This document shows, piece after piece, positions 671-64,000 of a stretch of DNA of 64,000 nucleotides. Made by a program: the position numbers and the translations under genes. Origin of the DNA: Nesterenkonia pannonica (GTDB lineage: Bacteria; Actinomycetota; Actinomycetes; Actinomycetales; Micrococcaceae); contig NZ_CP080575.1 of the NCBI RefSeq assembly GCF_019575955.1, positions 1,550,001 to 1,614,000 of the forward strand, given 5' to 3'. Numbering within the stretch: the first letter of the stretch is position 1; each line of letters starts with the position of its first letter. The notes beneath the pieces were generated by a model, which saw only the letters and a program-made list of their open reading frames with translations, was not told the origin of the DNA and did no database searches.

Positions 671-2138
671 GTGTCAGAGCAAGGGAACATCCGGAACAAT
701 CTCTGATCAACGGACAATGGGTCGCCCCGGCAGAAGGGACGGCCTACGACGTAGAAGACCCCGCGACAGGCAAGGTGGTCGGCCAGGCCGCAGCCGCCTC
801 GCCTACTGACGCACACACGGCAGTGCGAGCAGCACGCGCAGCCTTCGACGACCAGCGATGGTCAGGCATGCCCGCGCGGGAGCGCTCCCGCATTCTGCTC
901 AGAGCCGCATCCCTGATGCGTGAGCACACCGAGGAGCTCGCCCAGGCGGAGAGCCTCGACGTCGGCAAACCCATTACCTTTGCGCGGAACATCGACGTAC
1001 CGAACGCCGCGGACCACTTCGAGTACTACGGGGCGCTTGCCCAGCAGCTCGATGGGTCCGTCAGGAACACTCCGCTTCCGGCGCTGGCCTACACTCGCCG
1101 CGAACCCCACGGGGTTGTCGCAGCCATCAGCCCCTACAACTTCCCTCTGATCCTCAGCTGCTCAAAGATCGCCCCCGCACTTGCGGCTTAAGCAACACGG
1201 TGGTCCACAAGCCCGCACCCCAGACTCCGCAGACCGCTCAGCTGCTCGCCTAAGCATCCTCCAGGAGGCGGGTGTGCCTGATGGGGTATACAACCTCCTC
1301 ACTGGGCCCAGCCCGGAGCTCGGTGCGGCCTTGGTGGAGCATCCTGACGTCAACGCCATCGCGTTCACCGGCTCAACCGCTGTCGGCCGCCAGGTGGCAC
1401 GGACCGCGGGGAGCACCTGAAGCCTGTGGTCGCGGAGCTCGGCGGCAACGGTCCGAACATCATCTTCGAAGACGCGGACCTCGAGGCGGCGGTCAACACA
1501 GCCATCAGCGGGTTCATCTTCAACACCGGCCAGTTCTGCATGGCTTCTACCCGACTCCTGGTCCAAGAGTCCGCCTACGAAGCGGTCCTGAACATTCTGG
1601 AAGGCGCCGTGCCGCACGTTCCGGTCGGCCGACCCAGCGACCCCGGAACCGTGATCGGCCCGCTCATCAGCAGGTCCCAGCTCGAAGGCGTCGAGGCCAA
1701 GATCCAGCAGGCGCTGGATCAGGGCGGGCGGCTCATCACCGGAGGTTCGCGCCTGGAGCAGGACGGCGGCTTCTACTTGAGCCCACGGTGCTCGCCGACC
1801 TTCCCCAGGACGCGCCAATCATCCAGGAAGAGGTGTTCGGGCCGGTCCTCACCGTGCAGTCATTCAGCACGGAGGAGGAGGCCATTCGGCTCGCCAACAG
1901 CACCCCTACGGTCTCGCGGCCGGGCTCCAGTCGCAGAACATCAGCCGCGCGCACAGAGTCTCGGCGAAGCTCGACGCCTAAGCATCGTCTGGGTCAACGG
2001 CTGGGGCATGCTCGATGCGGCAGTGCCCTTCGGCGGAGTCGGCGACTCCGGATGGGGAGGGAGTCAGGGCCTGAAGCGCTGGCCTCCTACACACGCACCA
2101 AATCCGTCATCGTCGCAGTCGACCAGGAAGCCTCCTGA
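671..2138 (+). CDS. NAD(P)-dependent aldehyde dehydrogenase, frame-disrupted
   Basis: Joined across frames, this encodes a near full-length aldehyde dehydrogenase (about 490 residues) that would oxidise an aldehyde to its acid in the cytosol. Visible landmarks are INGQWVAPAEG near the start, AISPYNFPLILSCSKIAPAL, FTGSTAVGR, the active-site segment FNTGQFCMASTRLLV with the catalytic Cys, and EEVFGPVL. The frame is broken by three GCCGGC-type scars (1186-1193, 1248-1255, 1976-1983) and by short homopolymer losses near 1410, 1780, 1905 and 2055. The GTG at 671 is preferred because it fits the family N-terminus if one C is missing near 703. The lesions resemble those in essential genes elsewhere in the window, so the gene is probably intact in the organism. 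The substrate cannot be told. Confidence 0.8.
1186..1193. other. GCTTAAGC scar replacing GCCGGC (aldehyde dehydrogenase)
   Basis: The aldehyde dehydrogenase motif predicts ALAAGNTVV, in which Ala-Gly would be encoded by GCC GGC. The sequence reads GCTTAAGC, two bases longer, and gives a TAA stop. It is the first of about 30 such sites. Confidence 0.8.
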
Positions 2139-2255
2139 CGACCGAAACAGCCAATGTCGCGCTGAGCGGCGTACGCCGCGGGTAGGCTGACAGAATGATG
2201 ACGGCGAGGATGCGGCGCATCTGCGCCAGCCTGCCCCGACCTTTTTGGGGTCGCC

Positions 2256-4100
2256 ATGACGAAGACGTCGGAAACCCTGGACATCATCTCCTTCGACTTT
2301 GCTCCTGGGGCTGAGCACAAACTCCGCGAAGAAGGAACCCGCCTGCAGAACTGGCTTACCGTCTACCTGATCAGGAACGAGCAGAACCGCACCATCTACG
2401 TCGGCGAATCCACTAATGTTTCCAAACGCATCAGCCAGCACTACGCCAACCATGAGAAGACCAAGCTCAGGGCGCTGCATGGTTCACGCGCCAGAGAGTC
2501 GCGCGTCATCTTGACGACGAGTTCAACAAGTCGGCCGCCCTGGATCTTGAGGCTTTCCTCATCCAACACCTCGCGGGAGACGGCAAGTACCACCTGCTTA
2601 ATCGCAATGACGGCATTGTCGATCGCAATTACCACGGCAAGAACAGCTTCCAAGCTCGATTCCGCGGCCAGCTTTTCGATCAGCTCAGACAGCATGAGAT
2701 CTTTCGCAAGAGCATCGAAGAGATCGAAAACGACGACCTGTACAAACTCTCCCCGTTCAAATCACTTGAGGAAAACCAAGAACGAGCTGTTCGAGACATT
2801 GTCTCGCTGCTGCTGAGAAGTCTCAGCGGTAGGACCGCGGCAGGCTCCATCGTCGTCGAAGGAGACCCGGACGGGGAAGACAATCGTCGCAGTCTTCCTC
2901 CTCAAACTGCTCGTAGACATCGGCACAGCTGCTGACACCGATCCCGTGCAGGAGGAAGGTGAAGGGTCAGAGTTCAGCGAGTTCTTCACCCGAGAGAACC
3001 GGCTGGCCATCAGGTCCCTCCTGGAGACCGGTAACGGATCGGCCTAGTAGTCCTCAGCAGTCGCTGCGCGAATCGATACAACGGGTGTTCCGGCGAATCC
3101 CGCATCTCCGTGCGGACATGGTGGTCAGTCCCTTCACAGTGGGGAACTCCGACACCCGCTATTCCTTGCTCGTTGTCGACGAGACGCATCGCCTCTCTCA
3201 GAAAGCTGCGCAAGCGTCGGGCCCGCTGAACGGAACCTACCGCGACATCAACAGTCGACTCTTCGGGGATGAGCCCGACGGGGCACTTAAGACGCAGCTG
3301 GACTGTGCAGCGGCTGAGCGACCACCAGATCCTGCTTGCTGATCTGTCGCAGACCGTTCACGCCTCGGACCTGCCCAGGAGCACCTTCGCGGCGTCATTG
3401 CCAAAGCCGAGGGGGAGGGCAAACACCACAGGCTCCGCTCCCAGATGCGAGTCCTCGGCGGCAACGACTACATCAAGTACATCAAGTCGCTCGTCGGCGG
3501 AGAACCCCTCGTCATCCCACACGCTTCGGCAGCGATTACGAGTTCACCATGTTCGAGGATCCGGCGCAGATGCACCACGTGATCCGTGAACGCAATCAGG
3601 AGTTCGGGCTCGCCCGCATGGCAGCGGGCTACGCGTGGGAGTGGGTGAGCAAGAAGGACGGGTCGCTCACCGACATCCGCATTGGTGACTACCAGGCGCG
3701 CTGGAACTCGCGAGTGAAGGATTGGGTGGACTCACCCGGCTCGCTCGAGGAGGTCGGCTCCATCCATACCCTTCAGGGTTATGACCTCAACTACGCCGGG
3801 GTCATCATCGGCCCCGATCTGCGATACGACCCGGATGAGGACTCGCTATGGTTCGACCGAAGCAGCTTCTTCGACAAGCGGGCCATCTATCGCAATAAGC
3901 AGAAGGGACGAGACTGGACTCCTGAGGAGCTCCTCGAGTGGGTCCGCAATGTCTACTACGTTCTGCTCACTCGCGGCCGCCGTGGAACATTCGTCTACGT
4001 GTGCGATCACAACCTCCGCGAGTACCTTCGCCCGTATGTGCCCGATTTCGAATGGTCCGACCAGAAGGCCACATACAGGCGAAACCGCGACCACCGGTGA
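2256..4100 (+). CDS. GIY-YIG nuclease fused to DUF2075 DNA/RNA helicase domain
   Basis: The protein joins an N-terminal GIY-YIG nuclease-like module to a Schlafen-group-3 (DUF2075) helicase domain. In the first, NWLTVYLI leads to IYVGESTNVSKRISQHY. The second has a frame-broken Walker A (near 2860, originally GDPGTGKT), Walker B LLVVDETHRL, and helicase motifs including the late segment SIHTLQGYDLNYAGVIIGPDL. The length of about 610 residues is normal for the fusion. The frame is lost several times (about 2490, 2865, 3035, 3300, 3400, 3520), mostly through single missing bases. Proteins of this architecture are often seen in accessory regions and have been linked with phage defence, but no partner toxin or methylase is adjacent here. 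The DNA-processing role is inferred from domains only. Confidence 0.8.
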
Positions 4101-4114
4101 CGTGAGACTTCAGA

Positions 4115-4424: not shown

Positions 4425-4467
4425 AGAAACAAGAGTAGAACCAGATCCTGACACGTAAGCTGACAGC

Positions 4468-7308: not shown

Positions 7309-8221
7309 TGCAATCGGAAGCTTAAGCACTCCAGCGCCAGCAGCGGAGACCCTCGCGCCCGAAGCGGACGGGTCCACCCGTGAGCGGGTTCTGCAGCTCG
7401 TCGTGGAGGAGGGGCCAATCTCTGCGGCCCAGCTCGGCAAGAAGCTCAGCCTCACCCCCGCAGCGGTCCGTTTAACACTCGACGCCATGACCGAGCAGGG
7501 CATCGTCGAGATCAAAACCGTCACAGGATCCAAGCGCGCGGCCGGACGGCCCTCGCGCCGCTACGTGCTGTCCTCCCGCGGGCAGCAGATCCTGGGCGAC
7601 GACTACCTGAACCTCGTCCGGGCCGCTCTCCAGGTGCTGGACCAGCACGCTTCCGGCGAGCCACTCGCAGAAGCAGGAGCCGACCCTCAGCTCACGCCCG
7701 TGGACCAAGCCGGGATCGATACCCGTCAGGAAGCGGCCGCCGACTCCTACGGGGCACGCACCTCGCCAAGGAATACTTCTCCGGCTTCGAGGCCCGCTAC
7801 TGGGAGCAGCTCAGCAGCATCGAGGACCTCGACGAACGCTCCGAGAAGCTCGCCGAGCTCTTCAACGACGACGGATTCTCCGGCTTCACCCGGCTTGTGG
7901 GCCGCGACAACCCCTTCTGGCCATGCAGTCCACCCAACTCTGCCAAGGTCATTGCCCCGTCCGGGAAATAGCCGCCGCCCATCCGGTGTTCTGCGAGGAA
8001 GAGACCGCCATGATCTCCCGACTGCTGGAGGTCGATGTCCGGCGGCTCTCAACCCAGGCCGCGGGAGCACATGTATGCACAACACACGTCCCGGTCGGAC
8101 GCGAGAAGCTCGCTGCTGAACGCAGAGCCCGTGCAGAACAGGGACCACAGACCACCGCCGCACCCAGAAGGGGCGGCCGGAAGCGAATCGTAATCTCCCC
8201 GCGTCAACAAGAGAGGCTGTC

Positions 8222-9814: not shown

Positions 9815-11096
9815 ATGACCAACACCCCTGCCGAGCAGGAGGAGAAAGTCGCCGGAGTAGACGTCGGCGAACGCCGCATCTCCATTCCGGGCTTCACCGA
9901 AGAGGGCGAGAACCTCGCCGAGACCATGGACGACAGCCACAGCCACGGCGGCCTCGGCGAAAGCCAGGAGATCACCTCCGGCGTAAGCTCGCGCGCCAAG
10001 CGCACCGTGAGCTTCGACCCCGCCGACTACCCGCAGCCCACCGGCAGGAAGAGGAGTGGCGCTTCTCACCGCTGAAGAAGCTGGCCTCAGTCCTCGAAGA
10101 CACCCCCACCGAGGGCGCTCCTGTCGACTACCAGATCTCCGCCCCGAAACCGCTGCAGTGTCATCCTCACCGCCGACACCAGCCCCCGCGGATCCGTGCT
10201 GCAGCCTGCCGACCGCGCAGCTGCTATCGCCTCCAAGCAGACGCCGGAAGCTCTCTACATCCAGATCCCCGCCGACACCGAGATCGAAGCGCCCATTCGC
10301 GTCGACATCACCGGAGTCGAAGCAGGCAAACGGGCCAACAGCCACATCGTCCTCGAAGCCGCCGCGCACGCCAAAGGCACCATCGTCCTCGAGCACCGCG
10401 GATCCGCGATCTTCAACGGCAACGTCGAGATCAAAGTCGGTGACGGCGCAGACCTCAAAGTCATCAGCCTCCAGCGCTGGAACAGCGACGCCATCCACAC
10501 CGGCCAGCACGACGCCGAAGTGGGACGCGACGCGAAGTACAAGCACGTGGCCATCAGCCTCGGCGGCGAAATCGTCCGGCTCAACGTCAACTTCCGCTAC
10601 GCCGCAGAAGGCGCCGAAGCCGAAATGTACGGGCTCTACTTCGCCGACTCCGGCCAGCACATCGAGCACCGCACCTTCGTGGACCACAACTCGCCGTCCA
10701 ACAAGTCCAACGTGCTCTACAAGGGCGCGCTCCAAGGGCAGACGGCACGCACCGTGTGGATCGGCGACGTTCTCATCCGCAAAGAGGCAGAGAACACCGA
10801 CTCCTACGAGAAGAACGAAAACCTGGTCCTCACCGACGGCGCCCGAGCGGACTCCGTGCCCAACCTGGAGATCGAGACCGGCGTCATCGACGGCGCAGGC
10901 CACGCATCCTCCACCGGACGCTTCGACGAGAACCACCTGTTCTACCTCATGGCGCGCGGCATCCCCGAAGAGATCGCCCGTCAGCTGGTGGTCCGCGGAT
11001 TCCTCCACGAAATCATCCAGAAGATCGGCGTGCCCGCCATCGAAGAGGCTCCTCCAGGAGGACCTCGAGAACGAGCTCAAGATCCACGGCAACTGA
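9815..11096 (+). CDS. sufD: Fe-S cluster assembly protein SufD
   Basis: SufD pairs with SufB in the scaffold complex. The N-terminus MTNTPAEQEEKVAGVDVGER leads to the beta-helix core (for example GTIVLEHRGSAIFNGNVEIKV) and the typical C-terminus HLFYLMARGIPEEIARQLVV with GFLHEIIQKIG. Frame losses lie near 10050, 10160 and 11050. At 9983-9988 GTAAGC stands where GCCGGC is likely, changing Ala-Gly to Val-Ser without a frameshift. An RBS-like GGGAAGAG precedes the ATG. Many Arthrobacter-type operons carry a Rieske ferredoxin gene between sufD and sufC. Here only 51 bases separate them. Confidence 0.94.
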
Positions 11097-12455: not shown

Positions 12456-14052
12456 TTGATCAGCGTGTCCAACCTCGAACTGCGCGTCGGCGCGCGCCTG
12501 CTCATGGACGAGGTCTCCTTCCGGATCGACGCAGGGGACAAAGTCGGTCTCGTCGGCCGAAACGGGGCGGGAAAGACCACCATGACCCGCATCCTCGCCG
12601 GAGCCGGGCAGCCCACCGACGGCACAGTCGAACGCCGCGGAGAGATCGGGTACCTGCCCCAGGACCCCAAGGTCGAGAACATGGACCAGCTCGCGCGCGA
12701 GCGCATCCTCTCGGCCCGAAACCTCGACCAGGTCACCACGAAGCTGCGTGAGGCAGAGAAGGGCATGGCCTCAGAGGACGGGGCCGTCCAAGAGAAGGCC
12801 ATGAAGCGCTACGCCCGGCTCGAGGACGAATTCCAGGCAGGCGGGGGTACGCCGCCGAGGCCGAAGCAGCAACCATCTGCGCCAACCTCGACCTCCCTGA
12901 ACGCATCCTCACCCAGCCGCTGCACACGCTCTCCGGCGGTCAGCGCCACGCGTCGAGCTCGCCCGCATCCTGTTCTCCCAAGCCGAGACGCTGCTGCTCG
13001 ATGAGCCCACCAACCACCTCGACGCCGACTCCATCACGTGGCTGCGCGAACACATCAAAAACTTCCCGGCGGAGTGCTGATGATCTCCCACGACGTCGAC
13101 CTCATCGAAGACACCGTCAATAAGGTTCTGTACCTCGACGCCATGCGCCAAACGGTGGACGTCTACAACATGGGCTGGAAGAAGTACCTCGTCCAGCGTG
13201 AGCAGGACGAATCCCGGCGCAAGCGCGAATACGCCAACGCGGAGAAGAAGGCCTCCCAGCTGCGGCAGCAGGCCGACAAGATGAAGGCCACCGCGACCAA
13301 AGCCACTGCCGCCCAATCCATGCTCAAGCGCGCTGAGCGCATGATGCGCGGCCTCGAAGGAGAGCGGGCCACCGACAAGGTCGCCAAAATCCGCTTCCCA
13401 GAGCCCCAGTCCTGCGGCAAGACCCCGCTCATGGCGGAATCTCTCTCGAAGTCCTACGGCTCCCTCGAAATCTTCACCGGAGTCGATCTGGCCATCGACC
13501 GCGGCTCACGCGTCGTCATCCTCGGATACAACGGCGCTTAAGCAAGACAACGCTCATGCGGCTGCTCGCAGGAACCGCCGAGCCCGACACCGGGAACATC
13601 ATCTCCGGTCACGGGCTCAAGCTCGGATACTTCGCCCAGGAGCACGACACCCTCGACACCGAGCGCTCCGTGCTGGAGAACATGAAGACGGCAGCACCGT
13701 TCCTCAACGACACAGATCAGCGAAAGATCCTCGGATCCTTCCTCTTCTCCGGGGACGACACCGCAAAGCGGCGTCAGTGCTCTCAGGAGGCGAGAAGACG
13801 CGCCTGGCCCTGGCCACGCTCGTGGCCTCCAGGGCCAACGTGCTGCTGCTCGACGAGCCGACCAACAACCTCGACCCAGCCTCCCGCGAAGAGATCCTCG
13901 CGGCGCTGCGGACCTACGAAGGCGCGGTCGTCCTCATCTCCCACGACCCCGGTGCCGTTGAAGCGCTCGACCCCGAACGCGTCGTGCTGCTTCCCGACGG
14001 CGTCGAAGACCTCTACACAGCGGAGTACGAGGACCTCATCCAGCTGGAGTGA
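12456..14052 (+). CDS. ABC-F family ATP-binding protein
   Basis: This is a duplicated ATPase without membrane segments, of the ABC-F type that acts on ribosomes or in translational control. Domain 1 has Walker [10 protein letters not shown], signature [18 protein letters not shown] (frame-repaired) and [14 protein letters not shown]. The inter-domain linker holds the charged coiled coil around [20 protein letters not shown]. Domain 2 has a Walker A that should read GYNGAGKTT and [14 protein letters not shown]. The TTG at 12456 is chosen because of GGAG upstream and because the protein begins [11 protein letters not shown]. The second Walker A is destroyed by the GCTTAAGC scar at 13536-13543. 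Other lesions are near 12845, 12950, 13070 and 13770. The gene follows sufT in many Micrococcales. Confidence 0.9.
13536..13543. other. GCTTAAGC scar inside an ABC-F Walker A motif
   Basis: The invariant GxxGAGKTT requires Ala-Gly here, expected as GCC GGC followed by AAG. The sequence reads GCTTAAGC then AAG. The replacement removes the P-loop glycine and stops translation, which is implausible as a natural allele seen repeatedly across the window. Confidence 0.85.
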
Positions 14053-14061: not shown

Positions 14062-14968
14062 TCACCGGCCCGCCATATGCTCGTCGACCCAGGCGTCTTC
14101 GGCATCCTCATCCGTCAGGCGTCCCTGCTGACGCATCCGCTCGGCCCGTGCGCGCCTGAGAACCTCACGCTTAGGTATGCCCGCAGGCAGCTCACCGTCG
14201 TCCTCCTCCGCATAGGCCACGTCATTGCTCCGGGCCTGCAGACGGGCCGCATAGCCCCAGCCGACAAAGCTGAGCATTCCGAACGCGATCCACTGCATCG
14301 AATAGCCCAGGTGCGGTCCCTCATCCACGCTGGGACGAGCGAACCCTCGGGGCTGCTCAGCTTACTGCGGAGACTCCGATGACATCTCTCCGTAGGCGCC
14401 GCCCATGACGCTGTAGCCGACCTGATCCTCAATCTCGTCAGGCTCGATGGACGCCAGCTGGCCCTCGGGCGCATCACGGCCGATCTCAGGCTCGCCGGGC
14501 TTGATCCGCACCGTCACCTCGGCCTGCCCGCTCGGCGGCTCAGGGTTCTGACGCAGGCAGCGATCCGTCCTCGCTTCCCGGGGCAAGCCAGCCCCGGGAA
14601 ATGATCACCACGTCACCCGTCGAGGCCTCACGGAAGGGCACGACCTGCTCGTAGCCGACCTGCCCGGAGTTCGCACGGTTGCGGGCGAAGAGATGGTCCT
14701 GCGCCAGATACTCGCCGACGAGCTCCACGCTCTTCCACTCATCGTCCTCATCAGCAGAGGCGAAGATGTCCCGGGCCTCTGAGTAGGAAATGGGGTCCTG
14801 ATCGTAGTTGGCCTGGATGGTCCCGATCTCATCCAATGCGGCATCTCTGCGGTCCCACTGCCATTGGCCCAAGAAGTAGCAGACCACCATGAAGAGGATG
14901 CAGACCGCGAACCACCCGATCCAGGTGGGTGAGGCCAAGAACGAATACCGCTGACGAAAGTCCGTCAC
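14062..14968 (-). CDS. SURF1 family cytochrome oxidase biogenesis protein
   Basis: SURF1 proteins assist assembly of the aa3 cytochrome oxidase. The protein has an N-terminal helix (WIGWFAVCILFMVVCYFLGQ) followed by WQWDRRDAALDEI, the extracytoplasmic core (SVELVGEYLAQDHLFARNR, VIISRGWLAPG), and a second helix near the end in GYSMQWIAFGMLSFVGWGYA. Two-helix topology and about 300 residues are normal. GTG 14968 is the likely start. At 14360-14365 GCTTAC (minus strand GTAAGC) creates an in-frame TAA in SPQ*AEQPRGFARP, where SPQPAEQ is expected from GCCGGC. Other frame changes lie near 14400 and 14550. The C-terminal tail is charged. Confidence 0.85.
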
Positions 14969-33881: not shown

Positions 33882-34334
33882 GTGACCACCCCGTACGACG
33901 CCGTCGACGTCCCGCTCCGCCTCCTGGACTCTGAGCTTCCTCCGCCCTCCTATGCGTCCGAGGGCGACGCTTACGCGGATCTCCGAAGCACGGAAGACAT
34001 TGTTCTGCAGCCGGGGAGCGGCGCATGGTGCCGACAGGCGTTGCCCTCGCCATCCCCCCAGGGTGGGTAGGCCTCGTCCACCCGCGCTCCGGCCTTGCGG
34101 CCAAGCACGGCATCGCGCTGGTCAACGCGCCAGGGACGATCGATGCCAGCTACCGCGGTGAGATCAAGGTCCTCCTCCTGAACACCGACAGGGCAGAGTC
34201 TGCGGCTTTGGCCCGCGGAGACCGCATCGCCCAGCTGGTGCTTCAGCGCGTAGGCCAGGCAGTCTTCAGGACAGTCGAGGAGCTGCCCGGCAGCGAGCGG
34301 GGAACAGGCGGATTCTGGCTCCAGCGGACGCTGA
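33882..34334 (+). CDS. dut: Deoxyuridine 5'-triphosphate nucleotidohydrolase (dUTPase)
   Basis: The trimeric dUTPase hydrolyses dUTP to dUMP. Motif 1 should read GDAGADL but the sequence gives [14 protein letters not shown]. The Tyr comes from GCTTAC (33969-33974) in place of GCCGGC. Motif 2 [11 protein letters not shown], motif 3 [17 protein letters not shown], motif 4 [11 protein letters not shown] and motif 5 ERGTGGFGSSGR are all recognisable, the last after removal of one extra base near 34317. A second indel lies near 34015. The GTG at 33882 starts the protein [20 protein letters not shown], with a good fit to actinobacterial Dut. Confidence 0.93.
33969..33974. other. GCTTAC in place of GCCGGC in dUTPase motif 1
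   Basis: The invariant DAGADL of dUTPase requires Gly here. The sequence gives DAYADL. It is a length-neutral version of the recurrent lesion, with GCC GGC read as GCT TAC. Confidence 0.8.
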
Positions 34335-46820: not shown

Positions 46821-48502
46821 ATGGCTGAGCAGACACTCACCACCCGACAGGGCCACCCAGTTCAGCACAACCAGAACATGCGCACGGTCGGCTCACGCGG
46901 ACCCGCCACACTGGAGAATTACCACTTCCTCGAGAAGATCTCCCACTTCGACCGCGAGCGGATTCCCGAGCGCGTCGTGCATGCGCGCGGATTCGTAGCC
47001 TACGGCGAGTTCGAGGCGACCGGCATGATCGGCGACGAGCCCGCCTCGAAGTACACCCGCGCCAAGCTCTTCCAGGAAGCTTAAGCAAGAAGACCGACCT
47101 CGCCATCCGCTTCTCCACCGTGATCCACGGCCGCGACTCAGCAGAGACTCTGCGGGACCCCGCGGCTTCGCCGTGAAGTTCTACACCGAGGACGGCAACT
47201 GGGACCTCGTCGGGAACAACCTGGCCGTGTTCTTCATCCGTGACGCCATCAAGTTCCCCGATGTGATCCACTCCCTGAAGCCGGACCCCGTCTCCTTCCG
47301 ACAGGAGTAAGCGCGCATCCTCGACTTCATGAGCCAGGCGCCTGAGTCGATGCACATGCTCACCCACCTCTTCAGCCCTCGAGGCATTCCGGCCACGTAC
47401 CGGCACATGGAGGGCTTCGGCGTCAACACGTACAAAATGATCAACGCCGAAGGCGAGTCGGTCCTCGTCAAGTACCACTGGCATCCCAGAGTAAGCGTCG
47501 CCTCCTCAGCAGCGATGAGGCCGCCAAAGTGCAGGGTCAGGACCTCGGCCACGCCAGCCGCGACCTCTTCGACTCCATCGAGCGCGGCGAGCACCCCCAG
47601 TGGGACTTCTACGTCCAGATTATGGAAGACGCGGAGCACCCTGAGCTGGACTTCGACCCCTGGATGACACGAAGATCTGGCCGGAGGACCAGTTCCCGCT
47701 GCGCCACGTCGGCACCATGACGCTGAACCGCAACGTGGACGATCACCACAACGAAAACGAGCAGATCGCCATGGGCACCGGAGTGCTGGTGGACGGGCTC
47801 GACTTCTCGGACGACAAGATGCTGATCGGCCGCACCTTCTCGTACTCGGACACCCAGCGCTACCGGGTGGGCCCGAACTACCTGCAGCTGCCTGTGAACT
47901 CGCCCAAGGGCGTCAAGTCGGTGCACACCCACCAGCGCGGCGGCCTCATGTCCTACGGCGTTGACCTCGCCGAAGGACAGAACCCGCACGTAAACTACGA
48001 GCCCTCCATTACTGGCGGTCTCACCGAGGCGGAGAAGAAGCCGAACAACCAGCCCGAGATCACCGGTCGCGTTGCTCCTGCGAACATCGAGCGCCGCAAC
48101 GACTACATGCAAGCACGCGCCCGCTACGTCACGATGAATGCGTGGGAGCGCGACGGGCTGGTCGAGGAGCTCGGCGGCATGATTCAGGAGGCCGCACCGC
48201 AGGTGCAGGAGCGCTTCCTCTGGCACCTGTTCATGATCCACGATGACTACGGCACACGCGTCGGCGAGTTCATCAGCAAGAGCGCCGATGACGTCAAGCA
48301 CCTCGAACCCCTGTCGACGCAGACGCTCACGGAGGAGGAGCAGAAGCGCCTGCAGAACCTCGGTCGCAACGGTGACGAGTTCGACTCCACCGTCTGGGGC
48401 ACGTGGACCTCTTCGGTGGTCAACCACCAGGTCACCGCAGAGCAGGTGATGAACGGCCTGGGCAGCCTCGAGTACACCCGCGAGGACGCACCGGCCGCCT
48501 GA
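46821..48502 (+). CDS. Monofunctional heme catalase (large-subunit-like N-terminal core)
   Basis: The enzyme destroys hydrogen peroxide. Catalytic His is in [20 protein letters not shown], Asn in [20 protein letters not shown], and the proximal heme Tyr in [19 protein letters not shown]. The core matches clade 3 type small-subunit catalases (about 510 residues after repair). Three GCCGGC lesions fall in this gene: GCTTAAGC (47079-47086) in FQEAGKKTDL, GTAAGC (47307-47312) giving TAA in RQE*ARILDF, and GTAAGC (47491-47496) giving HPRVSVAS instead of HPRAGVAS. Other losses are near 47157, 47508 and 47672. GAAAGGAG precedes ATG 46821, and the upstream in-frame ATG is not used. Confidence 0.93.
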
Positions 48503-49853: not shown

Positions 49854-50291
49854 GTGGCGCTGAAGCACTCCATGAAACGTGGCAGCTCGAAGGAACGTGC
49901 ACGCGGGCGCAAGCGCGATGCGGGACTGGGACGCACCTCCTGGGTCTTCTCCGCTTACTTCGCTCCCAGTCAGAGCACAGGCCAGGAGCCTGAGTTCACC
50001 TCACGCAATACCCTCTGTCTGCTGAACACTGCGTTCGAGGAGGCCTGCGTTCGCCTCACCGTGTTCCACGATGACGCAGAACCCGTCGGGCCGTACGAAA
50101 TCCTCGTGGACCCAAGACGAGTGCGGCACCAGCGGATCAACGATCTCATCGAACCCGAAGCCGTCCCGCTGGACGCGCCGTTCGGCCTCGTCGTCGAGTC
50201 TGATGTTCCGGTGGTGGCTCAGCTCTACTACTTCGACTCGCGGGGAGGCGCCCTGAGCGCCTCCCACCTGAATCCGGCTCCGGCGGACTGA
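49854..50291 (+). CDS. ASRT family protein (anabaena sensory rhodopsin transducer-like)
   Basis: The conserved pattern TSRNTLCLLNTAFEEACVRL, VFHDDAEPVGPYEILVDPRR, VRHQRINDLIEPEAVPLDAP and SDVPVVAQLYYFDSRGGAL matches the ASRT/sensory rhodopsin transducer fold, a small beta-sandwich tetramer. No rhodopsin gene is in the window, and in actinobacteria such proteins are thought to bind sugars or act near sugar metabolism, which suits the oxidase next to it. The start is GTG 49854. The segment FSAYFAPSQS probably should be FSAGFAP (GCTTAC at 49953-49958 for GCCGGC). It follows the oxidase stop by four bases, so co-transcription is likely. Confidence 0.8.
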   Translation: MALKHSMKRGSSKERARGRKRDAGLGRTSWVFSAYFAPSQSTGQEPEFTSRNTLCLLNTAFEEACVRLTVFHDDAEPVGPYEILVDPRRVRHQRINDLIEPEAVPLDAPFGLVVESDVPVVAQLYYFDSRGGALSASHLNPAPAD

Positions 50292-50292: not shown

Positions 50293-51143
50293 CTAGCCTC
50301 GCTCTGCCTCGGCGGCATCGATGAGCGCGCCATACCCTTCGCGGAACGTCGGGTAGCGCAGTCCGTCGGCCGGAAGAAGCGAATGGAGCAGGCTGGCGTC
50401 GATCGTCTTGCCCGTGAGTGTTCCGTCGCCCGAATCTTCCGGCACGGGCACTCCGAGGCGGGACGCGACGTAGGTGAGCACTTCGCCCATGGTGGATGGG
50501 GCGCGGTCCACAGCGTGGACCAGAGAGGGAGGCTCCTCCAGCTCGAGGAGCGTCACGATGGCGCTGGCCAGATCGTCTGAGTGGATCCTGTTGGTGATGC
50601 GTCCGTGATCGGTACTTGCTTACCCGGACGCGGTCAATCGTCCGTGTCCGCCCGGGCCCGTATATCCCTGCTTACCGCACCACGGTCACCTCCGGAAACT
50701 GCGCGTATGCATCGCTCTCTGCACTGTGAAGAACCTTGGCTGTTGCTCTTTCGGCGACGGCGGGGTCTGCTCGGTGACAGTGTCACCGTCCCAGTCGCCC
50801 AGGACACCGGTCGATGAGACGAACACCAGGCGGGGAGCGGGCGCGGCAGGATCGAGGCGAGGCCTGCGAGAGTCTGCCGGTACGCGCGCTCATACCCCTC
50901 ATGAGTGGGCTCGTCCGCTGTCATGGCAATAACGACGGCATCTGCCGCCGGCAGCTCGTGCCTGCGGTCGGGTTCAGCGAGATCCATTCCCAGCACCGGG
51001 AAGGGGAGCCCATGAGGCTTCGGGCGGCGCCTGATGCCGGTCACTGGCGTACCCTGTGCGTGCAGCAGCGTCCCGACCCGTTCACCCAGGTCGCCGCATC
51101 CGGCCAGCAGCACATGCTGCAGCGGGCTTGTTCTCGCTGTCAT
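50293..51143 (-). CDS. NAD-dependent epimerase/dehydratase-type protein (SDR)
   Basis: The nucleotide motif is VLLAGCGDLGERVGTLL, with GIRRRP after strand 2 and LVFVSSTGVLGDWDGDTVTE in the repaired frame. The conserved VVRPAGIYGPGR and RITNRIHSDDLASAIVTLLE follow. Two length-neutral GTAAGC lesions (minus strand at 50618-50623 and 50670-50675) fall in this part. One changes the Ala-Gly of RVRAGK and the other creates TAA in VVR*AGIYGPG, where VVRPAGIYGPG is expected. Further changes occur near 50745 and 50860. It is related to YeeZ-type proteins. The substrate is unknown. It is convergent with the ASRT gene, with stops two bases apart. Confidence 0.78.
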
Positions 51144-51528: not shown

Positions 51529-52425
51529 TCACGCTCCTGTGAACGGCTTGCCGCCGGTGACGGGGATGACGGCGCCCGAAGTGTAGCTCGCCTCCTCGGA
51601 GGCCAGGTATACGTAGGCTCCAGCGAGCTCGGTAAGCTGCCCGGCGCGCTCCATAGGGTGTCGCCGCCGAAGTTCTCCACCTTTGACTCGGGGAAGCCGG
51701 TGGCCGGGATGAGAGGGGTCCAGATCGGTCCCGGAGCGACCGCGTTGACGCGGATGCCGCGAGGCGTGAGCTCTTGTGCCAACGACTCCGTGAAGGCGAC
51801 CTGGGCCGCCTTCGTCATCGCGTAGTCGAACAGCGGGGAGCGGGGCCTGCTGCCTGCACGGATGTGGTCGTGATGATCGAACCGCCCTCGGGGATGTGCG
51901 GCACCGCGTGCTTGGTCAGCGCAACGTGAGCGGTGAGGTTGGTGCCGAACACCTTCTTCACGTCATCCATGGATACGTGCTCGATGCCGCTGCGCTTGCG
52001 CTGGTAGGCCGCGTTCAGAATGAGCACGTCGATTCCGCCCAGGTCCTTCAGCGCATTGCCGACGACGCCTTCCGCAGCGTCGTCCTTCGTCAGGTCAGCC
52101 GGGTATGCGTGCCCGCGCTTACCAGCATCGTGAACATGCTTGAGCGTCTCTTGGGCGTCCTCCTTCTCCTCCGGGAGATGGACGAACGCTATGTCGGCCC
52201 CTCCCGCGCGAAGGCGATGGCGGTTGCTCGCCCGATCCCGGAGTCTCCGCCGGTGATCAGCACCTTCTTCCCCTTGAGGCGATCGGCGCCGACGTAGGAG
52301 TCTTCGCCGTGGTCAGGGGTGGGTGCTGTTTCGCTGTCCAGGCCTGGCTGACCCACATCCCCATGCGCGGGGAACTGATCGTCATGATGCTTGGTGGTCG
52401 GGTCCGTCTGGTTCTTCTCAGTCAT
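51529..52425 (-). CDS. SDR family oxidoreductase (YhdF/YhxC-like general stress type)
   Basis: The charged N-terminal extension (MTEKNQTDPTTKHHDDQFPA) is followed by the dehydrogenase fold: KVLITGGDSGIGRATAIAFA, PADLTKDDAAEG, LILNAAYQRKRSG, SIITTTSVQAA and Tyr-x3-Lys in DYAMTKAAQVAFTESLAQEL. The C-terminus is YTSGAVIPVTGGKPFTGA. This is the pattern of general-stress SDRs next to catalase-type genes. Two GCCGGC lesions are likely: GTAAGC (51632-51637), where GQLTELAG should be GQPAELAG, and GCTTAC (52117-52122). Frame changes also occur near 51655, 51840 and 52195. Length about 295. Confidence 0.85.
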
Positions 52426-58424: not shown

Positions 58425-59631
58425 TTAGCTCACTGCCTCCCCGCGAATGACCGTCGCTCTCCACCGAGGCAGGCCTCCCTCCTCATCGCGTCCGGGGAGG
58501 TACGGGAGCAGCGGTGTGCGGGCACGGGTATCTGTGCTCCACGCCGACACAGCCGAGTGGGGAGTCTGCACTGACAGGGAGTCCGCCTCCCACACCACAT
58601 ATGTCGCCTCCGACCCAGGATTCAGGGTTCCCGCCTCCGGCTGGCCACCTGGCAGGAGCGGAACGCTCCTCGGGTCTGCGCATTGAAGCTTAAGCACGCA
58701 CAGACACCGGGTCGCTCTGGTGATGCACGTGCTCACTGATCAGCTGCCACGGGCTCTCCCCCTCAGGCGGGGCCGCCGACGTAGGGACTCCCACGCTCAG
58801 GGCAGTGGAGAGATGGATGGCCCGCCGGGCGAGCACCTGCGCCCCAGTGTTGAGCAGGTCTTCCCAATGAGCCCGCTGCGAGGAGTCGAAGCCGACCAGG
58901 ACCGTGGGGTTCTCAGCGCTCGGGGTGTGCTTCAGCTGCCGGAGCTGGGACGTGGTTGCTGCGAGAGACTGGACCACCTCCCCGGGTCCTCACCGGTGAC
59001 GTCAATCAGAAGCTGGCGGGACTCCTCCGCCATCCAGGTGCGGACACCGATGAGGTTCTCGGCCACCTCCGCATAGGACACGGCCACAGAGATGCGTCGG
59101 CCCTCCGCCTCTTCGACCTCGTGGGCGTCCCCAGCAGCGTCAGGAGTTCGTTCAGTGCCCTCAGACCGCCCGCTCCGGCCACATCGTGCAGCCCGGAGAG
59201 CTGCACAACCGGGTATGTGTCCATCGGATGCGCGGCCGCCGTGCGCAGAGAGCTGGTCAGTCCCGTGACGACGCTCTGCAGCGACTCACCTGTGAGCAGC
59301 TCCGCCGGGATGGCCAGCCCCATTCTGAGGGTCGTGTAGCCCAGAGCTGCTGCGGCGTCGAGACGCTCGGCCAGATCACCTGAGTCCCCTCAGCGACACC
59401 GCGCGTAATCCACCCAACGAATCCGGGCGCAACCAGCGTCCGGTCGAGGTCCTGCTCCTGGACGACGCCCTCGGGATACTGCTCCTTGAGCCGAGAGGCG
59501 GTCTCGTCGGATCCGAGCCACGCCACGTGTCCCTTCTCGACGAGCATCGCCTCGGCGTAGGGCTCCGCAGTGGAATGGATCGTCCCGTTGTTCAGAAGGT
59601 GCACGCTCTCGAGCGAGGCGGCTTCATTCAT
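58425..59631 (-). CDS. Amidohydrolase-like protein (YtcJ/metal-dependent type)
   Basis: The N-terminus is [20 protein letters not shown] followed by [20 protein letters not shown] and, after a frame change near 59425, the barrel part. [16 protein letters not shown] follows in another frame, then [19 protein letters not shown] and [15 protein letters not shown]. Late residues PVSVRA and FNAQTRG are separated by the GCTTAAGC scar at 58688-58695, where RAGFNAQTRG is expected, as in amidohydrolases. The end is [20 protein letters not shown]. It has the general shape of an actinobacterial amidohydrolase downstream of helY, but clear metal His ligands were not located. Substrate unknown. It overlaps helY by eight bases. 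Confidence 0.7.
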
Positions 59632-62556
59632 CGTCAAGTTCTTCGTCCTCCATGGATTGGTACGCGACTGAGGAGTATGCCACCACTCCCCTGCTGATGA
59701 GGCTGACCGCGTCCTGGCAGGCCGTGGCGAGCTTGCTGGTGGCCGTCGGCACCTTTGACAGCTGGTCGAGCGCGTCGATGCACTGCTTGGCCCACCGTAC
59801 AAAATCTCCGGCGGCCAAAGGGGACTCCTCAAGGGCGGCTCGGAGGCTGGCGCCCGAGGCCCACCGATGCATCGGCAGCGTCAGGCCCATCTCCGGCGCA
59901 GCAGTCGGCTCGAGGTGATGCCGCTTCTCCAGCGCTTCCAGCTCGGTGTGCACCTCCAACGCTTCGCGGACCGCACGTGTGAGACCCGTCGTGGGCATCT
60001 GCGGCATCGCGCCCTCGTCCTCGCGCTTTGCCTGGTAGACCAGAAGGGTTGCGAACGACGCAAGCTCCTGCGGGCTCAGCGCGCTCAAGGCACCCTGCTC
60101 CACAAGCATCTCCGTGAAGAGATCTCGCTCGCCGTAGATGCGCCGGAGCCTCTGTCCCCGCTCCGTGACCACGAACTCCTCGGCCCGGAACTCATCCGCC
60201 ACGGGCGCCGCCGTCGGCATCCGTTCATCGTCGGCGGGCACCATGTGCCTGAGGTCGAAGAGCACCCCGCACACTCGGTCGAACGTCTTGGCGATGGAGC
60301 CGGTGCGCTGATCAATCTTGGCCTTGAGCTGATCCGTCTCCCTCTGCAGCTTCCACCAGCGCTCCGCCCAGCGGACGTGGTCCTCCCGATCGCTGCAGGA
60401 GTGGCAGGGTGCTTGCGAAGGGCGTTTTCGAGCTGCTCGGTGTGTTCGCTGTCACCCGGCTGTTCGGCGAAGCCGAACCCCGGCTGCGGTGCGTTCTGAC
60501 GAGGCGGAACCCGCTCCTGCAGGGCGGCCCTGAAGCTGGATGCGAGATCCCTGCGGATCTTGGGCACCTTGACCTGGGGTTTGCGAGGAAGCCGTATGGA
60601 GGAGATCACCTCAGGCGGCTGGGCGAAATCCTCGACTGTGAGGCTGCGAAGCTTGCCGTCATGGGTTACAACGCCGGGCCGCGGGTCGTGCTCCGGCGCG
60701 GCATGGACGACCAGGCACTCCCCAGATGACGCTTCGCCTTGCCGACCGAGCCGACGTCGATGATGTCCCCAGGCTCGAGGGCGGAGAGGACACGCACGAT
60801 GTCCCGACGTCGCTGACGGCTTCTTGCCTTGGCCTGGTCCTTCTGCTGCTCGTTCAGCCTGCGTCTCAGCTCGAAGTACTCCTTGAAGCTGCCGAGGTGG
60901 CACTCCATGGATTCCTCGTAGCCTACCAACGAGGACTCGCGCTTGGCGACGTCGCGCGCCAGGCCCACCACGGCACGGTCGGCCTGGAACTGCGCGAAGG
61001 AGGACTCCAGAATGGTGCGGGCCCTGCGCCGTCTGAACTGAGCCGTGAGATTCACGGCCATGTTGTAGCTCGGGCTGAACGAGGAGTTCAGCGGGTAGGT
61101 GCGCTTCGACGCCAGACCTGCCACCTGCCGCGGATCCATGCCCGGCTGCCAGACGACCACCGCGTGCCCTTCGACGTCGATGCCGCGTCGGCCCGCACGT
61201 CCGGTCAGCTGCGTGAATTCGCCTGGCGTGATGTCGACGTGCGACTCGCCGTTGAACTTGTCGAGCTTCTCCAGAACGACGGTCCGGGCTGGCATGTTGA
61301 TGCCCAGGGCCAGCGTTTCTGTGGCGAAGACCACCTTGAGCAGTCCCTCGGCGAAGAGGCTCTCGACCAGCTCTTTGAAGGGAGGCAGCATGCCGGCGTG
61401 GTGAGCGGCGACACCGCTGACGAGCGCCTCCCGGAATGTGTCGAAGCCGAGCACGGAGAGATCTTCGGCTTAGCAGCTCCCACCCCATCGCTTCAACGCG
61501 TGAGCTGATTTCGGCCGCCTCTTCCTTCGACGTCAGTCGCAGGTCCTGCTGGACGCACTGCTCCACTGCGGCCTCGCAGCCAGCCCTGGAGAAGATGAAG
61601 GCGATGCAGGGCAGCAGAGCCTGGCGGTCCAATGCGCGGATCATCTTGGGGCGAGAGAGCCTGTGCGTGCGCGATGGGGCCCCTGACAAGCTGGAGACCT
61701 GAGAGGACCCGCCTCCGCGCGCAGACGTGCGCTGCTCCCGCTGCGGACCTCCTCGGCCTCCCACGACCACGATGGCCGCCCGGGCGGCGCGAGCCGGGTG
61801 ACTGCTGCAGCTGGACCATCCGCTGAAGCTGCGGATTCACGAGTGCCTGACGGTCGTCAGCCTCCTCCTCGTCAGCCTCGCCGGTGAACAGGTCGTACAG
61901 CTGGTGATCCACCACCATGTGCTGCCACAGCGGCACGGGACGGTGCTCTGAGACCACCACGGCGGTCTCGCCGCGCACGGTGTCCATCCATGCGCCGAAC
62001 TCTTCTGCGTTGGAGACCGTGGCCGAAAGCGCAGCCACCTGAACCGACTCCGGCAGGTGGATGATCACCTCTTCCCACACGGCGCCGCGGAAGCGGTCAG
62101 CCAGGTAGTGCACCTCGTCCATGACGACGTACCGAAGCTGCTCGAGGGTCGATGAGTCCTGGTACAGCATGTTCCTCAGGACTTCGGTGGTCATCACGAC
62201 CACGTCCGCTTCGGAGTTCACCGAGGTGTCGCCGGTGAGAAGCCCCACACGCGCGGCGCCGTAGTCCTCAACGAGCTCCTGATACTTCTGGTTGCTCAGC
62301 GCTTTGATGGGAGTGGTGTAGAAGGCCTTCTTGCCCTGGGCCAGGGCAAGGTGAACCGCGAACTCCCCGACGATCGTCTTGCTTACTCCCGTGGGCGCGG
62401 CGACCAGCACCGCCTTCCGGCTTCCAGTTCACGGCATGCCTGCACCTGAAATTCGTCCAGGTCGAAGGCCTGCGCCGCCCTGAAGGCACCCAACTGTGTC
62501 TTGGCCTCCGCGGCGCGACGGCGAGAGGCTGCATAGCGTTCGGCCGGTGAGCTCAT
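59624..62556 (-). CDS. helY: HelY-type DEAD/DEAH box RNA helicase (Mtr4/Ski2-like)
   Basis: The protein begins at ATG 62556 (MSSPAERYAASRRRAAEAKT). Helicase motifs are Walker A, expected APTGAGKTIVGEFAV but reading APTGVSKT (GCTTAC at 62381-62386), TTPIKALSNQKYQELVEDYG, VVMTTEVLRNML, DEVH in YVVMDEVHYLADRFRGAVWE, VAALSATVSNAEEFGAWM, and in the second half FATETLALGINMPARTVVLE and GEFTQLTGRAGRRGID. The C-terminal DSHCT-like domain ends [23 protein letters not shown] (61468-61474) breaks the frame in WELLPAEDLSVLG. The length of about 970 residues is normal for HelY. Frame losses are also present near 62415, 61800, 61760, 60690 and 60400. Confidence 0.92.
62381..62386. other. GCTTAC in place of GCCGGC in the HelY Walker A motif
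   Basis: On the minus strand GTAAGC encodes Val-Ser between PTG and KT, where the invariant P-loop needs Ala-Gly (GCCGGC). This is a length-neutral instance of the recurrent lesion, in an essential motif. Confidence 0.85.
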
Positions 62557-62595: not shown

Positions 62596-62984
62596 CTAGC
62601 CCGACTGGACGGGCGCCAAGCTCTCGCTCTCCTCCTCAGTGAAGAGACGGGACCTCACGAGGAAGCGGTGACCGGTGGGACCCTCAATGCTGAACCCTGC
62701 TCCCCTGCCCTGCGTGACGTCGATGGTGATGTGGGTGTGGGACCAGTACTCGTACTGCGCTTTGGAGATCCAGACCGGGACGGGCTCGCCCGTTCCCGCA
62801 TCCAGCTCCCCAGAAGAACGTCCGCCGGACCCGTGGCGAAGGTTCCCTGGGTGTAGCACATCGGGGCCGAGCCGTCGCAGCAGCCTCCGGACTGATGAAA
62901 CATCAGAGGTTGGCCATGGTCCTCGCGCAGCTGCCGCAGGAGCGCAGCAGCCTCTTCGGTGATCGCGACACGTTCGGCACTCAT
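62596..62984 (-). CDS. DUF779 family protein
   Basis: The protein reads MSAERVAITEEAAALLRQLR, then MFHQSGGCCDGSAPMCYTQG with conserved cysteines, VPVWISKAQYEYWSHTHITI and DVTQGRGAGFSIEGPTGHRF with LVRSRLFTEEESES. This is DUF779, which is typically encoded next to a broad aldehyde dehydrogenase, exactly as here. The function is unknown but the Cys/His content suggests a metal site. One base is lost near 62815. About 128 residues, two frames repaired. Confidence 0.9.
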
Positions 62985-63075
62985 AGGGGCCTCCTTCAGA
63001 CTTTGGGACGTCGCTCACTCGGCGGGATGGCCGGTGCGCACCAGCTGCGATGCGCACCGGCCCCTGCCGTCTGGA

Positions 63076-64000
63076 TCAGAAGAAGCCGAGCTTGTCCTCT
63101 GAGTAGCTCACCAGCATGTTCTTCGTCTGCTGATAGTGCGCCAGCATCATGAGGTGGTTCTCACGGCCGATGCCCGACTGCTTGTATCCGCCGAATGCCG
63201 CATGCGCCGGGTACTGGTGGTAGCAGTTCGTCCAGACCCTGCCTGCCTGAATGTCTCTTCCTGCACGATACGAAATATTGGCATCGCGGGACCACACACC
63301 GGCGCCGAGTCCGTAGAGCGTGTCGTTGGCGGTGGAGATGGCATCGCGGTAGTCGGAGAACCCCGTCACCGACACGACAGGACCGAAGATCTCCTCTTGG
63401 AAGACGCGCATTCTGTTGGTGCCGCGGAAGATCGTCGGCTCCACGTAGTAGCCTCCGGCCAGGTCTCCGTCCAGCTCGGCCCGAGCACCTCCAGTCAGCA
63501 CCTCGGCACCCTCCTTCTGGCCGATGTCGAGGTAGCTCAGGATCTTCTCCAGCTGGTCGTTGCTGGCTTGGGCTCCGACCTGGGTGTCGGTGTCCAGAGG
63601 GTTGCCCTGAACGACGGCCTTCGTCCTTCCACCGCTGCTTCGAGGAAGCTGTCGATGATGCTGTCCTGGATGAGCGCTCGTGAAGGACAGGTGCACACCT
63701 CGCCTTGGTTGAGCGCGAACATCGTGAAGCCTTCAAGTGCTTTGTCGTAGAAGGCGTCATCGGCCCGGCTGACATCCTCGAAGAAGATGTTCGGACTCTT
63801 CCCGCCGAGCTCCAGCGTGACCGGAATGAGGTTCTGGGATGCGTTCTGCATGATGAGCCGACCCGTGGTGGTCTCACCGGTGAAGGCAATCTTACGGATC
63901 CTCGAGCTGGATGCCAGCGGAGCGCCTACTCGGCTCCGAAGCCGTTGACCACATTGAGCACGCCATCAGGGAGCAGGTCTGCGATGAGCTCCATCAGCAG
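63076..64000 (-). CDS. Aldehyde dehydrogenase of the DUF779-linked (ExaC/AcoD-like) type, 5' part cut by the window edge
   Basis: The visible C-terminal part has [38 protein letters not shown], the catalytic Cys segment [60 protein letters not shown] and [20 protein letters not shown], ending SEDKLGFF. The paired Cys (CTC) and the DUF779 neighbour mark the acetaldehyde/broad-substrate type. A probable GCCGGC lesion is at 63923-63929 (GAGTAGGC for GAGGCCGGC), giving TAG after GFGAE. One base is lost near 63625. The gene continues beyond 64000. Confidence 0.9.

What the first reader, a model, noticed from the sequence alone, without database searches (positions are those of the whole stretch)
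1186..63929. A specific sequence lesion: GCCGGC repeatedly reads as GCTTAAGC, GCCTAAGC, GCTTAGC, GCTTAC or complements
At about 30 places where conserved protein sequence predicts GCCGGC (Ala-Gly, Pro-Ala or Arg-Pro/Gly contexts), the central CpG is replaced by TTAA-like bases. Two-base gains (GCTTAAGC etc.): 1186, 1248, 1976, 7320, 13536, 16469, 16618, 17915, 36846, 44321, 47079, 58688. One-base gains: 24980, 61468, probably 30924. Length-neutral (GCTTAC or GTAAGC): 9983, 14360, 26683, 26774, 28956, 33969, 44848, 47307, 47491, 49953, 50618, 50670, 51632, 52117, 62381. One-base losses: about 13770 and 63924. Both strands are affected and the core is palindromic, so it fits a symmetric event such as base-calling failure at modified cytosine in a methylated GCCGGC (NaeI/NgoMIV-like) site. 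The inferred biology is a GCCGGC methyltransferase.
Basis: partly seen in the sequence, partly recalled or inferred. Interest (0 to 1): 0.85.

Follow-up and report, generated by a model that had tools for sequence, protein, structure and literature searches.

The report
Methylated GCCGGC sites misread in assembly
The odd TTAA-like letters in this bacterial genome are most likely sequencing errors left where the DNA sequence GCCGGC carries a chemical mark from the cell's own restriction-modification system, so they are a data artefact that happens to point to a real enzyme system.

Summary
The window lies in a Nesterenkonia genome (2.70 Mb, one contig, 62.5% complete). GCCGGC is its most depleted hexamer; GCTTAC and GCTTAAGC are strongly enriched. 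At 11 of 29 alignable sites a relative reads GCCGGC, against 46 of 2016 random places. Genome-wide, GCCGGC occurs 686 times against 2412-9020 in 29 congeners; GCTTAAGC 165 times against 1-31.
The form taken depends strongly on the flanking bases, replicated in a second 400 kb, as expected of a signal miscall.
The predicted enzyme type exists outside the window, at 174.7-177.1 kb: a C5-cytosine methyltransferase, a NaeI-family endonuclease and Vsr. That methyltransferase type lies beside NaeI in 18 of 25 loci from other genomes.
Best reading: nanopore-type consensus errors at 5mC-marked NaeI sites, a known kind of artefact. Limits: visible lesions plus intact sites make up only about half of the GCCGGC expected, real scarcity is plausible, and most detected frame changes lie elsewhere. 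Platform and methylation are inferred.

The parts
1186..1193 (.). GCTTAAGC, two-base-gain form
   Evidence: exact string; no relative aligns
1248..1255 (.). GCCTAAGC form
   Evidence: exact string; no relative aligns
1976..1983 (.). GCCTAAGC form
   Evidence: exact string; no relative aligns
7320..7327 (.). GCTTAAGC form
   Evidence: G013 reads GCTGGC, G001 GCCGAG
9983..9988 (-). GTAAGC, length-neutral minus form
   Evidence: G013 reads GCCGGC
13536..13543 (.). GCTTAAGC form
   Evidence: G013 and G003 read GCCGGC, two bases shorter
13768..13772 (.).
   Evidence: G013 reads GCCGGC; no TTAA letters
14360..14365 (+). GCTTAC, length-neutral plus form
   Evidence: G001 reads GCCGGC but failed the flank filter
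16469..16476 (.). GCTTAAGC form
   Evidence: G013 and G002 read GCCGGC
16618..16625 (.). GCTTAGGC form
   Evidence: relatives read GCAGGC, GCTGGC, GTCGGC or GCGGGC
17087..17092 (+).
   Evidence: G013, G001 and G002 read GCCGGC
17915..17922 (.). GCTTAAGC form
   Evidence: G002 reads GCCGGC
24980..24986 (.). GCTTAGC, one-base-gain form
   Evidence: no GCCGGC in four aligned relatives
26683..26688 (+). GCTTAC form
   Evidence: all four relatives read GCCGGC
26774..26779 (+). GCTTAC form
   Evidence: G013 reads GCCGGG, others GCTGGG, GCAGGT, GCCGGA
28956..28961 (+). GCTTAC form
   Evidence: G013 and G003 read GCCGGG
30924..30930 (.). GCTTAGC form
   Evidence: no GCCGGC in three aligned relatives
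33969..33974 (+). GCTTAC form
   Evidence: G002 reads GCCGGC but failed the flank filter
36846..36853 (.). GCTTAAGC form
   Evidence: the one aligned relative reads otherwise
44321..44328 (.). GCCTAAGT, imperfect form
   Evidence: G013 reads CCCCGGCC here
44848..44853 (+). GCTTAC form
   Evidence: no relative passes the filter
47079..47086 (.). GCTTAAGC form
   Evidence: G013 reads GCCGGC
47307..47312 (-). GTAAGC form
   Evidence: G013 reads GCCGGC
47491..47496 (-). GTAAGC form
   Evidence: G013 reads GCCGGC
49953..49958 (+). GCTTAC form
   Evidence: G013 reads GCCGGC
50618..50623 (+). GCTTAC form
   Evidence: no relative aligns
50670..50675 (+). GCTTAC form
   Evidence: no relative aligns
51632..51637 (-). 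GTAAGC form
   Evidence: G013 reads GCAGGC
52117..52122 (+). GCTTAC form
   Evidence: G013 reads GCTGCC
58688..58695 (.). GCTTAAGC form
   Evidence: no relative aligns
61468..61474 (.). GCTTAGC form
   Evidence: no relative aligns
62381..62386 (+). GCTTAC form
   Evidence: no relative aligns
63924..63929 (.).
   Evidence: no relative aligns

Best explanation
The genome carries a NaeI-type restriction-modification system whose C5-cytosine methyltransferase marks GCCGGC on both strands. The assembly was made from native-DNA long reads of nanopore type whose base caller did not know this mark, so a strand's read of GCCGGC tends to come out as GC-TTA-C, above all before a pyrimidine. The consensus shows the plus-strand error (GCTTAC), the minus-strand error (GTAAGC) or a merger of both (GCTTAAGC, GCTTAGC). 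Shown here: the words, their excess, GCCGGC at homologous places in relatives, the flank dependence, and the NaeI/methyltransferase/Vsr cluster. Inferred: the platform, that the mark is 5mC, that the enzyme is active, and the merging step.
For: Relatives read GCCGGC at lesion sites. Against G013, GCCGGC is kept at 3 of 205 places, while GGCGCC is kept at 34 of 149, CGGCCG 28 of 162, CCGCGG 40 of 181, GCGCGC 22 of 86, GGGCCC 13 of 65; three other congeners keep G013's GCCGGC at 23 of 75, 28 of 72 and 15 of 70. At 33 of the 205 places this genome has a word with TTA or TAA. GCCGGC is the most depleted and GCTTAC the most enriched hexamer (by z) against stretches of four relatives. Flank dependence in the first 264 kb: pyrimidine-GCCGGC-purine intact in 31 of 52, purine-GCCGGC-pyrimidine in 1 of 30, chi-square p about 2e-17; in 400 kb of new stretches 70 of 113 and 7 of 65. 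Read in one orientation, GCTTAC is followed by a pyrimidine in 247 of 311 cases (79%), against 41-64% for nine look-alike words in the same 664 kb and 13 of 24 for GCTTAC in G013. The genome holds NaeI (PF09126; best solved match 1ev7 NaeI), PF00145 and Vsr side by side, and that methyltransferase type (42% identity or more) lies within the roughly 1.5 kb held either side of NaeI in 18 of 25 loci of other genomes. Error signature: CCCCCC 1 against 39 in G013; frame changes 11.5 per 10 kb coding against 0.26-1.5. Neighbouring lesions share orientation slightly more than chance (177 of 290 pairs, 155.7 expected; 34 of 5000 permutations reach it). Published precedent, passages read: PMC6591954, PMC10687267, PMC11610573.
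Against: Visible lesions plus intact sites make up only about 182 of the 374 GCCGGC expected in 264 kb (my sum). G204 and G397, which have NaeI and are 100% complete, show even lower GCCGGC/CGGCCG ratios (0.17, 0.22) without a GCTTAC excess, so part of the shortage can be real. CCCGGG (6 of 83) and CGCGCG (7 of 49) are also kept rarely against G013. Twelve of 22 covered reader sites show no GCCGGC in a relative. GCTTAC is unequal between contig strands genome-wide (732:506, p about 1e-10; control word 488:549) but not in my samples (60:58:85 with p 0.11), so I cannot explain that inequality. The reverse-complement symmetry of the flank rule is what any strand-symmetric word would show and is not evidence by itself. 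A second C5 methyltransferase exists. No reads were seen and no record names the platform.
Confidence: 0.85

Rival explanations
1. The letters are true: the genome really lost GCCGGC by mutation (avoidance of a restriction site, or deamination and repair of methylated C), leaving TTA-like scars.
For: GCCGGC is scarce in some other NaeI-bearing genomes. Single substitutions at G013's GCCGGC places fall on codon position 3 in 54 of 68 coding cases, so real loss exists too.
Against: The TTA/TAA forms change about three letters at once and often add one or two bases; their form depends on flanks; in 25 other NaeI-bearing genomes GCTTAC (both strands) is 0.003-0.70 times as frequent as GCCGGC, here 1.8 times; the assembly is full of other frame changes.
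Confidence: 0.06
2. A base-calling artefact at GCCGGC, but from another mark: the second, phage-neighboured C5 methyltransferase, an enzyme not found by the searches, or a mark other than 5mC.
For: A second PF00145 gene lies at about 1761.1-1761.7 kb among phage-like genes. Its target is unknown.
Against: It is not the type linked to NaeI: at NaeI loci of other genomes it finds only weak matches (25-32%), all in loci that also match the NaeI-linked type. No PF01555 (N6/N4) methyltransferase was found, though that is one family in a frameshifted genome.
Confidence: 0.06
3. A sequence-only artefact: the base caller fails at GCCGGC whatever its chemistry.
For: The flank rule shows that sequence context matters. 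The assembly has many other errors, and two other GC palindromes are kept rarely.
Against: Five of seven other GC palindromes are kept at 17-26%, and none of 393 other genomes of the class comes near this one in CGCTTAAGCA (54 against at most 8, both strands summed). How many of those are nanopore-only is unknown.
Confidence: 0.02

Closest known systems
Dcm-motif (CCWGG) consensus errors in nanopore assemblies (PMC6591954, passages read)
   Same: 5mC from a C5 methyltransferase at a palindromic motif causes consensus errors when the base caller was not trained on it.
   Different: Motif GCCGGC and NaeI linkage here; errors here often add one or two bases and rewrite the core as TTA/TTAA. Platform inferred, not known.
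Modification-mediated errors at GCAGC and GCTGG in Listeria (PMC10687267, passages read)
   Same: Low-quality assemblies whose errors centre on one motif specific to a lineage.
   Different: There shown with hybrid and whole-genome-amplified data; here inferred from the assembly alone, with a restriction-modification system that names the motif.
NaeI restriction-modification system (NaeI structures 1ev7 and 1iaw)
   Same: NaeI-family endonuclease beside a C5 methyltransferase, as in 18 of 25 NaeI loci of other genomes of the class.
   Different: In this assembly the endonuclease matches in four pieces and the methyltransferase in two, presumably through sequencing errors; activity untested.
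GCCGGC methylation in Neisseria gonorrhoeae (NgoAIV; PMC12871193) and Aeromonas hydrophila NEB724 (PMC8565308); passages read
   Same: 5mC at GCCGGC, by nanopore 5mC calling and by RIMS-seq respectively.
   Different: Reported as methylation, not as consensus lesions in the passages seen; no NaeI relation tested.

Membership tests
Modification-induced consensus errors of long-read assemblies | Errors concentrate on one sequence motif | tested here: met
   GCCGGC kept 3 of 205; five of seven other GC palindromes kept at 17-26%, CCCGGG 6 of 83 and CGCGCG 7 of 49 lower; most depleted hexamer.
Modification-induced consensus errors of long-read assemblies | A methyltransferase for that motif is present | tested here: met
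   C5 methyltransferase next to NaeI endonuclease; specificity inferred from the partner, not assayed.
Modification-induced consensus errors of long-read assemblies | Error depends on read strand and local context | tested here: inconclusive
   Strong flank dependence, replicated; weak clustering of orientation; strand inequality genome-wide but not in samples. Per-strand reads not available.
Modification-induced consensus errors of long-read assemblies | Errors vanish in amplified DNA or short reads | not testable with these tools
   No reads available.
Modification-induced consensus errors of long-read assemblies | Nanopore platform | tested here: inconclusive
   Shortened C/G runs and many frame changes fit it; no record of the platform.
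NaeI-type restriction-modification system | NaeI-family endonuclease | tested here: met
   PF09126 in four pieces over the cut-off; phmmer of one piece to 1ev7, E 1.7e-19.
NaeI-type restriction-modification system | Adjacent C5 methyltransferase of the type found at other NaeI loci | tested here: met
   18 of 25 loci of other genomes at 42% identity or more (some matches short because the held locus ends), 21 of 25 with weaker matches, 4 of 25 none.
NaeI-type restriction-modification system | Intact catalytic and target-recognition regions | not tested
   Both genes are interrupted in this assembly; not read through.
NaeI-type restriction-modification system | Cleaves and methylates GCCGGC | not testable with these tools
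   Needs an assay.

The most novel reading that the evidence does not exclude
The mark at these NaeI-type sites is not plain 5mC but a larger modified cytosine, which would explain why the core is rewritten as TTA or TTAA with added bases instead of a single C-to-T miscall.
Probability: 0.05. Interest if true: 0.6.

Novelty: new member of a known kind. Interest (0 to 1): 0.3.

Why it matters
A deposited assembly can carry a readable footprint of a strain's methylation: here sequence alone led to a motif and then to an enzyme system that fits it. The footprint probably alters roughly a thousand or more places in this genome (my estimate: 1238 GCTTAC/GTAAGC, less a background scaled from G013, plus 165 GCTTAAGC), so gene calls, site counts and trees from it deserve care. 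It also warns that restriction-site depletion statistics can be inflated by such errors.

Tried and rejected
Frame-breaking gaps in nucleotide alignments: not usable, because the relatives gave rates of 37-47 per 10 kb against 47 here through compensating gaps; replaced by protein-level frame changes. That all frameshifts come from GCCGGC: rejected, 10 of 123 detected frame changes lie near a length-changing lesion (1.6 by chance), 6 near a length-neutral one only, 107 near none. That GCAGGC and GCCCGC at G013's GCCGGC places are further miscalls: not favoured, since single substitutions fall mostly on codon position 3 and total counts of those words show no excess. G001 as a control for a working NaeI system: rejected, its NaeI-family gene holds unknown bases and only 43 residues of the methyltransferase type match. 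A test for strand blocks along the contig gave a weak signal; control words GCATAC, GCTTCC, GCTTGC and GCATTC did not exceed their permutations by more than 1.5 s.d., but the control word GTTGAC shows short-range agreement of orientation too. An NgoMIV-like endonuclease (another GCCGGC cutter, recalled and named) was not searched for. Rfam scan of the window: one tRNA. Literature: in the listings I saw no paper whose title or abstract start reports GCCGGC consensus errors; this covers those searches of an open-access library only. The listing (Nesterenkonia and nanopore) did not identify this genome; no paper of it was opened. The 80 named loci served only to place the genus.


Full report
What the window is. 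The window is 1550001-1614000 of a single 2,699,453-base contig with 62.5% completeness.

The observation. GCCGGC occurs 8 times in 64 kb where 56 (first-order) or 72 (third-order) are expected, and GCTTAAGC 8 times where 0.7 are expected. In 264 kb (window plus ten neighbouring stretches) compared with stretches of four congeners, GCCGGC is the most depleted hexamer by z-score (45 sites, 374 expected), and GCTTAC, GCTTAA, TAAGCA and CTTAAG are the most enriched. Over whole genomes GCCGGC occurs 686 times against 2412-9020 in 29 congeners; its ratio to the reversed word CGGCCG is 0.25 against 0.92-1.46. GCTTAAGC occurs 165 times against 1-31. In 394 genomes drawn from the class, CGCTTAAGCA occurs 54 times here (both strands) and at most 8 times in any other.

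What stood there. Aligned with four congeners, 29 of 42 examined sites (32 reader sites and 10 more motif occurrences) have a usable relative and 11 of these have GCCGGC in at least one; random places give 46 of 2016 and eight look-alike hexamers 1 of 60. In the reverse direction, 205 GCCGGC of G013 align with good flanks in the 264 kb: 3 are kept and 33 carry a TTA or TAA word. Other GC palindromes: GGCGCC 34 of 149, CGGCCG 28 of 162, CCGCGG 40 of 181, GCGCGC 22 of 86, GGGCCC 13 of 65, and lower CCCGGG 6 of 83 and CGCGCG 7 of 49. Three other congeners keep G013's GCCGGC at 23 of 75, 28 of 72 and 15 of 70. The remaining single substitutions fall mostly on codon position 3 (54 of 68 coding cases, frames from long open frames of G013), that is, ordinary divergence.

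Why it looks like a miscall. The outcome depends on the neighbouring bases. In the first 264 kb, with a pyrimidine before and a purine after, GCCGGC is intact in 31 of 52 cases; with a purine before and a pyrimidine after in 1 of 30; with pyrimidines on both sides GCTTAC prevails (24 of 42), with purines on both sides GTAAGC (36 of 58); chi-square p about 2e-17. Twenty further stretches (400 kb) repeat this: 70 of 113, 7 of 65, 52 of 78 and 48 of 81. These counts include natural GCTTAC and GTAAGC. Read in one orientation, GCTTAC is followed by a pyrimidine in 247 of 311 cases, while nine look-alike words in the same 664 kb give 41-64% and GCTTAC in G013 13 of 24; intact sites are concentrated in the pyrimidine..purine class (101 of 164) against 139 of 449 in G013. 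The reverse-complement symmetry of the rule is not evidence by itself. Neighbouring lesions share orientation somewhat more often than expected (177 of 290 pairs, 155.7 expected, 34 of 5000 permutations as high), which fits consensus stretches dominated by one read strand but is weak, since some control words show short-range agreement too. GCTTAC is more frequent on the contig's plus strand genome-wide (732 to 506; control 488 to 549), yet 60 to 58 and 108 to 85 in my samples; unexplained. The assembly has shortened C/G runs (CCCCCC 1 against 39 in G013) and 123 detected frame changes in 84 genes (11.5 per 10 kb coding) against 0.26-1.5 per 10 kb in three relatives.

The enzyme. PF00145 finds two C5-cytosine methyltransferases. 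One, at 174.7-175.6 kb, lies beside a NaeI-family endonuclease (PF09126, four pieces at 175.7-176.5 kb, each over the cut-off) and a Vsr gene at about 176.6-177.1 kb. The only solved relative of the endonuclease's first piece at E up to 0.001 is NaeI (1ev7, E 1.7e-19). NaeI recognises GCCGGC (PMC7653180, passage; the review PMC4081073 prints the site otherwise, passage, which I take for a misprint). PF09126 occurs in 26 of 394 genomes drawn from the class, this one included. In the 25 loci of the other genomes the same type of methyltransferase (42% identity or more) is in the roughly 1.5 kb held either side in 18, weaker matches bring this to 21, and 4 have none. The second methyltransferase lies among phage-like genes and is not of that type. 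No PF01555 enzyme was found.

Most likely mechanism. A NaeI-type methyltransferase marks GCCGGC (inferred); native reads of nanopore type are miscalled there (inferred from flank dependence and the general error pattern); the consensus keeps GCTTAC, GTAAGC or a merged GCTTAAGC/GCTTAGC (words shown, merging inferred). Precedents: Dcm sites made up about 70% of consensus errors for then-current ONT base callers on K. pneumoniae (PMC6591954, passages); motif-centred errors in Listeria (PMC10687267, passages); strand-dependent base ratios in Klebsiella (PMC11610573, passages). 5mC at GCCGGC is known in other bacteria (PMC12871193 and PMC8565308, passages).

What does not fit neatly. In 264 kb, visible lesions (about 137 above background) and 45 intact sites sum to about 182 of 374 expected (my arithmetic). 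The rest may be real scarcity or forms that I did not recognise. Real scarcity is plausible: among 25 other NaeI-bearing genomes the GCCGGC/CGGCCG ratio runs from 0.17 to 1.42, with G204, G397 and G368 below 0.3, and GCTTAC is 0.003-0.70 times as frequent as GCCGGC there against 1.8 here. G412 has a high GCTTAC to control ratio (0.94) with normal GCCGGC. Length-changing lesions lie near only 10 of 123 frame changes (1.6 by chance), so the low completeness is probably due mostly to other errors.

Verdict. It is most likely an artefact of a known kind with an unusual error form.

Noticed in passing
G000:C1:1752000-1771999 (L115), 8675-9776 minus: A second C5-cytosine methyltransferase among phage-like genes; target unknown.
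   Followed up: partly
L143-L167 (NaeI loci of other genomes): NaeI-bearing genomes differ widely in GCCGGC content (ratio to CGGCCG 0.17-1.42). A Vsr gene is in the held flanks of 10 of 25 loci: 6 of the 10 genomes with the lowest ratio and 4 of the other 15. A lead on repair or avoidance, not tested and confounded by kinship and short flanks.
   Followed up: partly
L142 5096-6234 (G001): A NaeI-family gene holding unknown bases, with Vsr-like sequence and only a 43-residue match to the methyltransferase type: a relic or an assembly gap; GCCGGC is not depleted in that genome.
   Followed up: partly
whole window and sampled genome: Shortened C/G runs and a detected frame change roughly every 0.9 kb of coding sequence, mostly away from GCCGGC; other error classes or modified motifs may exist (ACGTCAG, GTCGAC and CGCGTC are mildly enriched).
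   Followed up: partly
G000 whole contig: GCTTAC is unequal between strands genome-wide (732:506) but not in the sampled stretches, while single 20-kb stretches are lopsided, for example L181 13:0 and L185 1:11.
   Followed up: partly
window:34025-35239 +: One open frame joins a dUTPase and a DUF3710 domain; a real fusion or a frameshift artefact was not tested.
   Followed up: no
window:120-192 +: A tRNA gene (Rfam RF00005, 64.6 bits).
   Followed up: no
G014 (unnamed congener): 31 GCTTAAGC, the highest among congeners after this genome; cause unknown.
   Followed up: no
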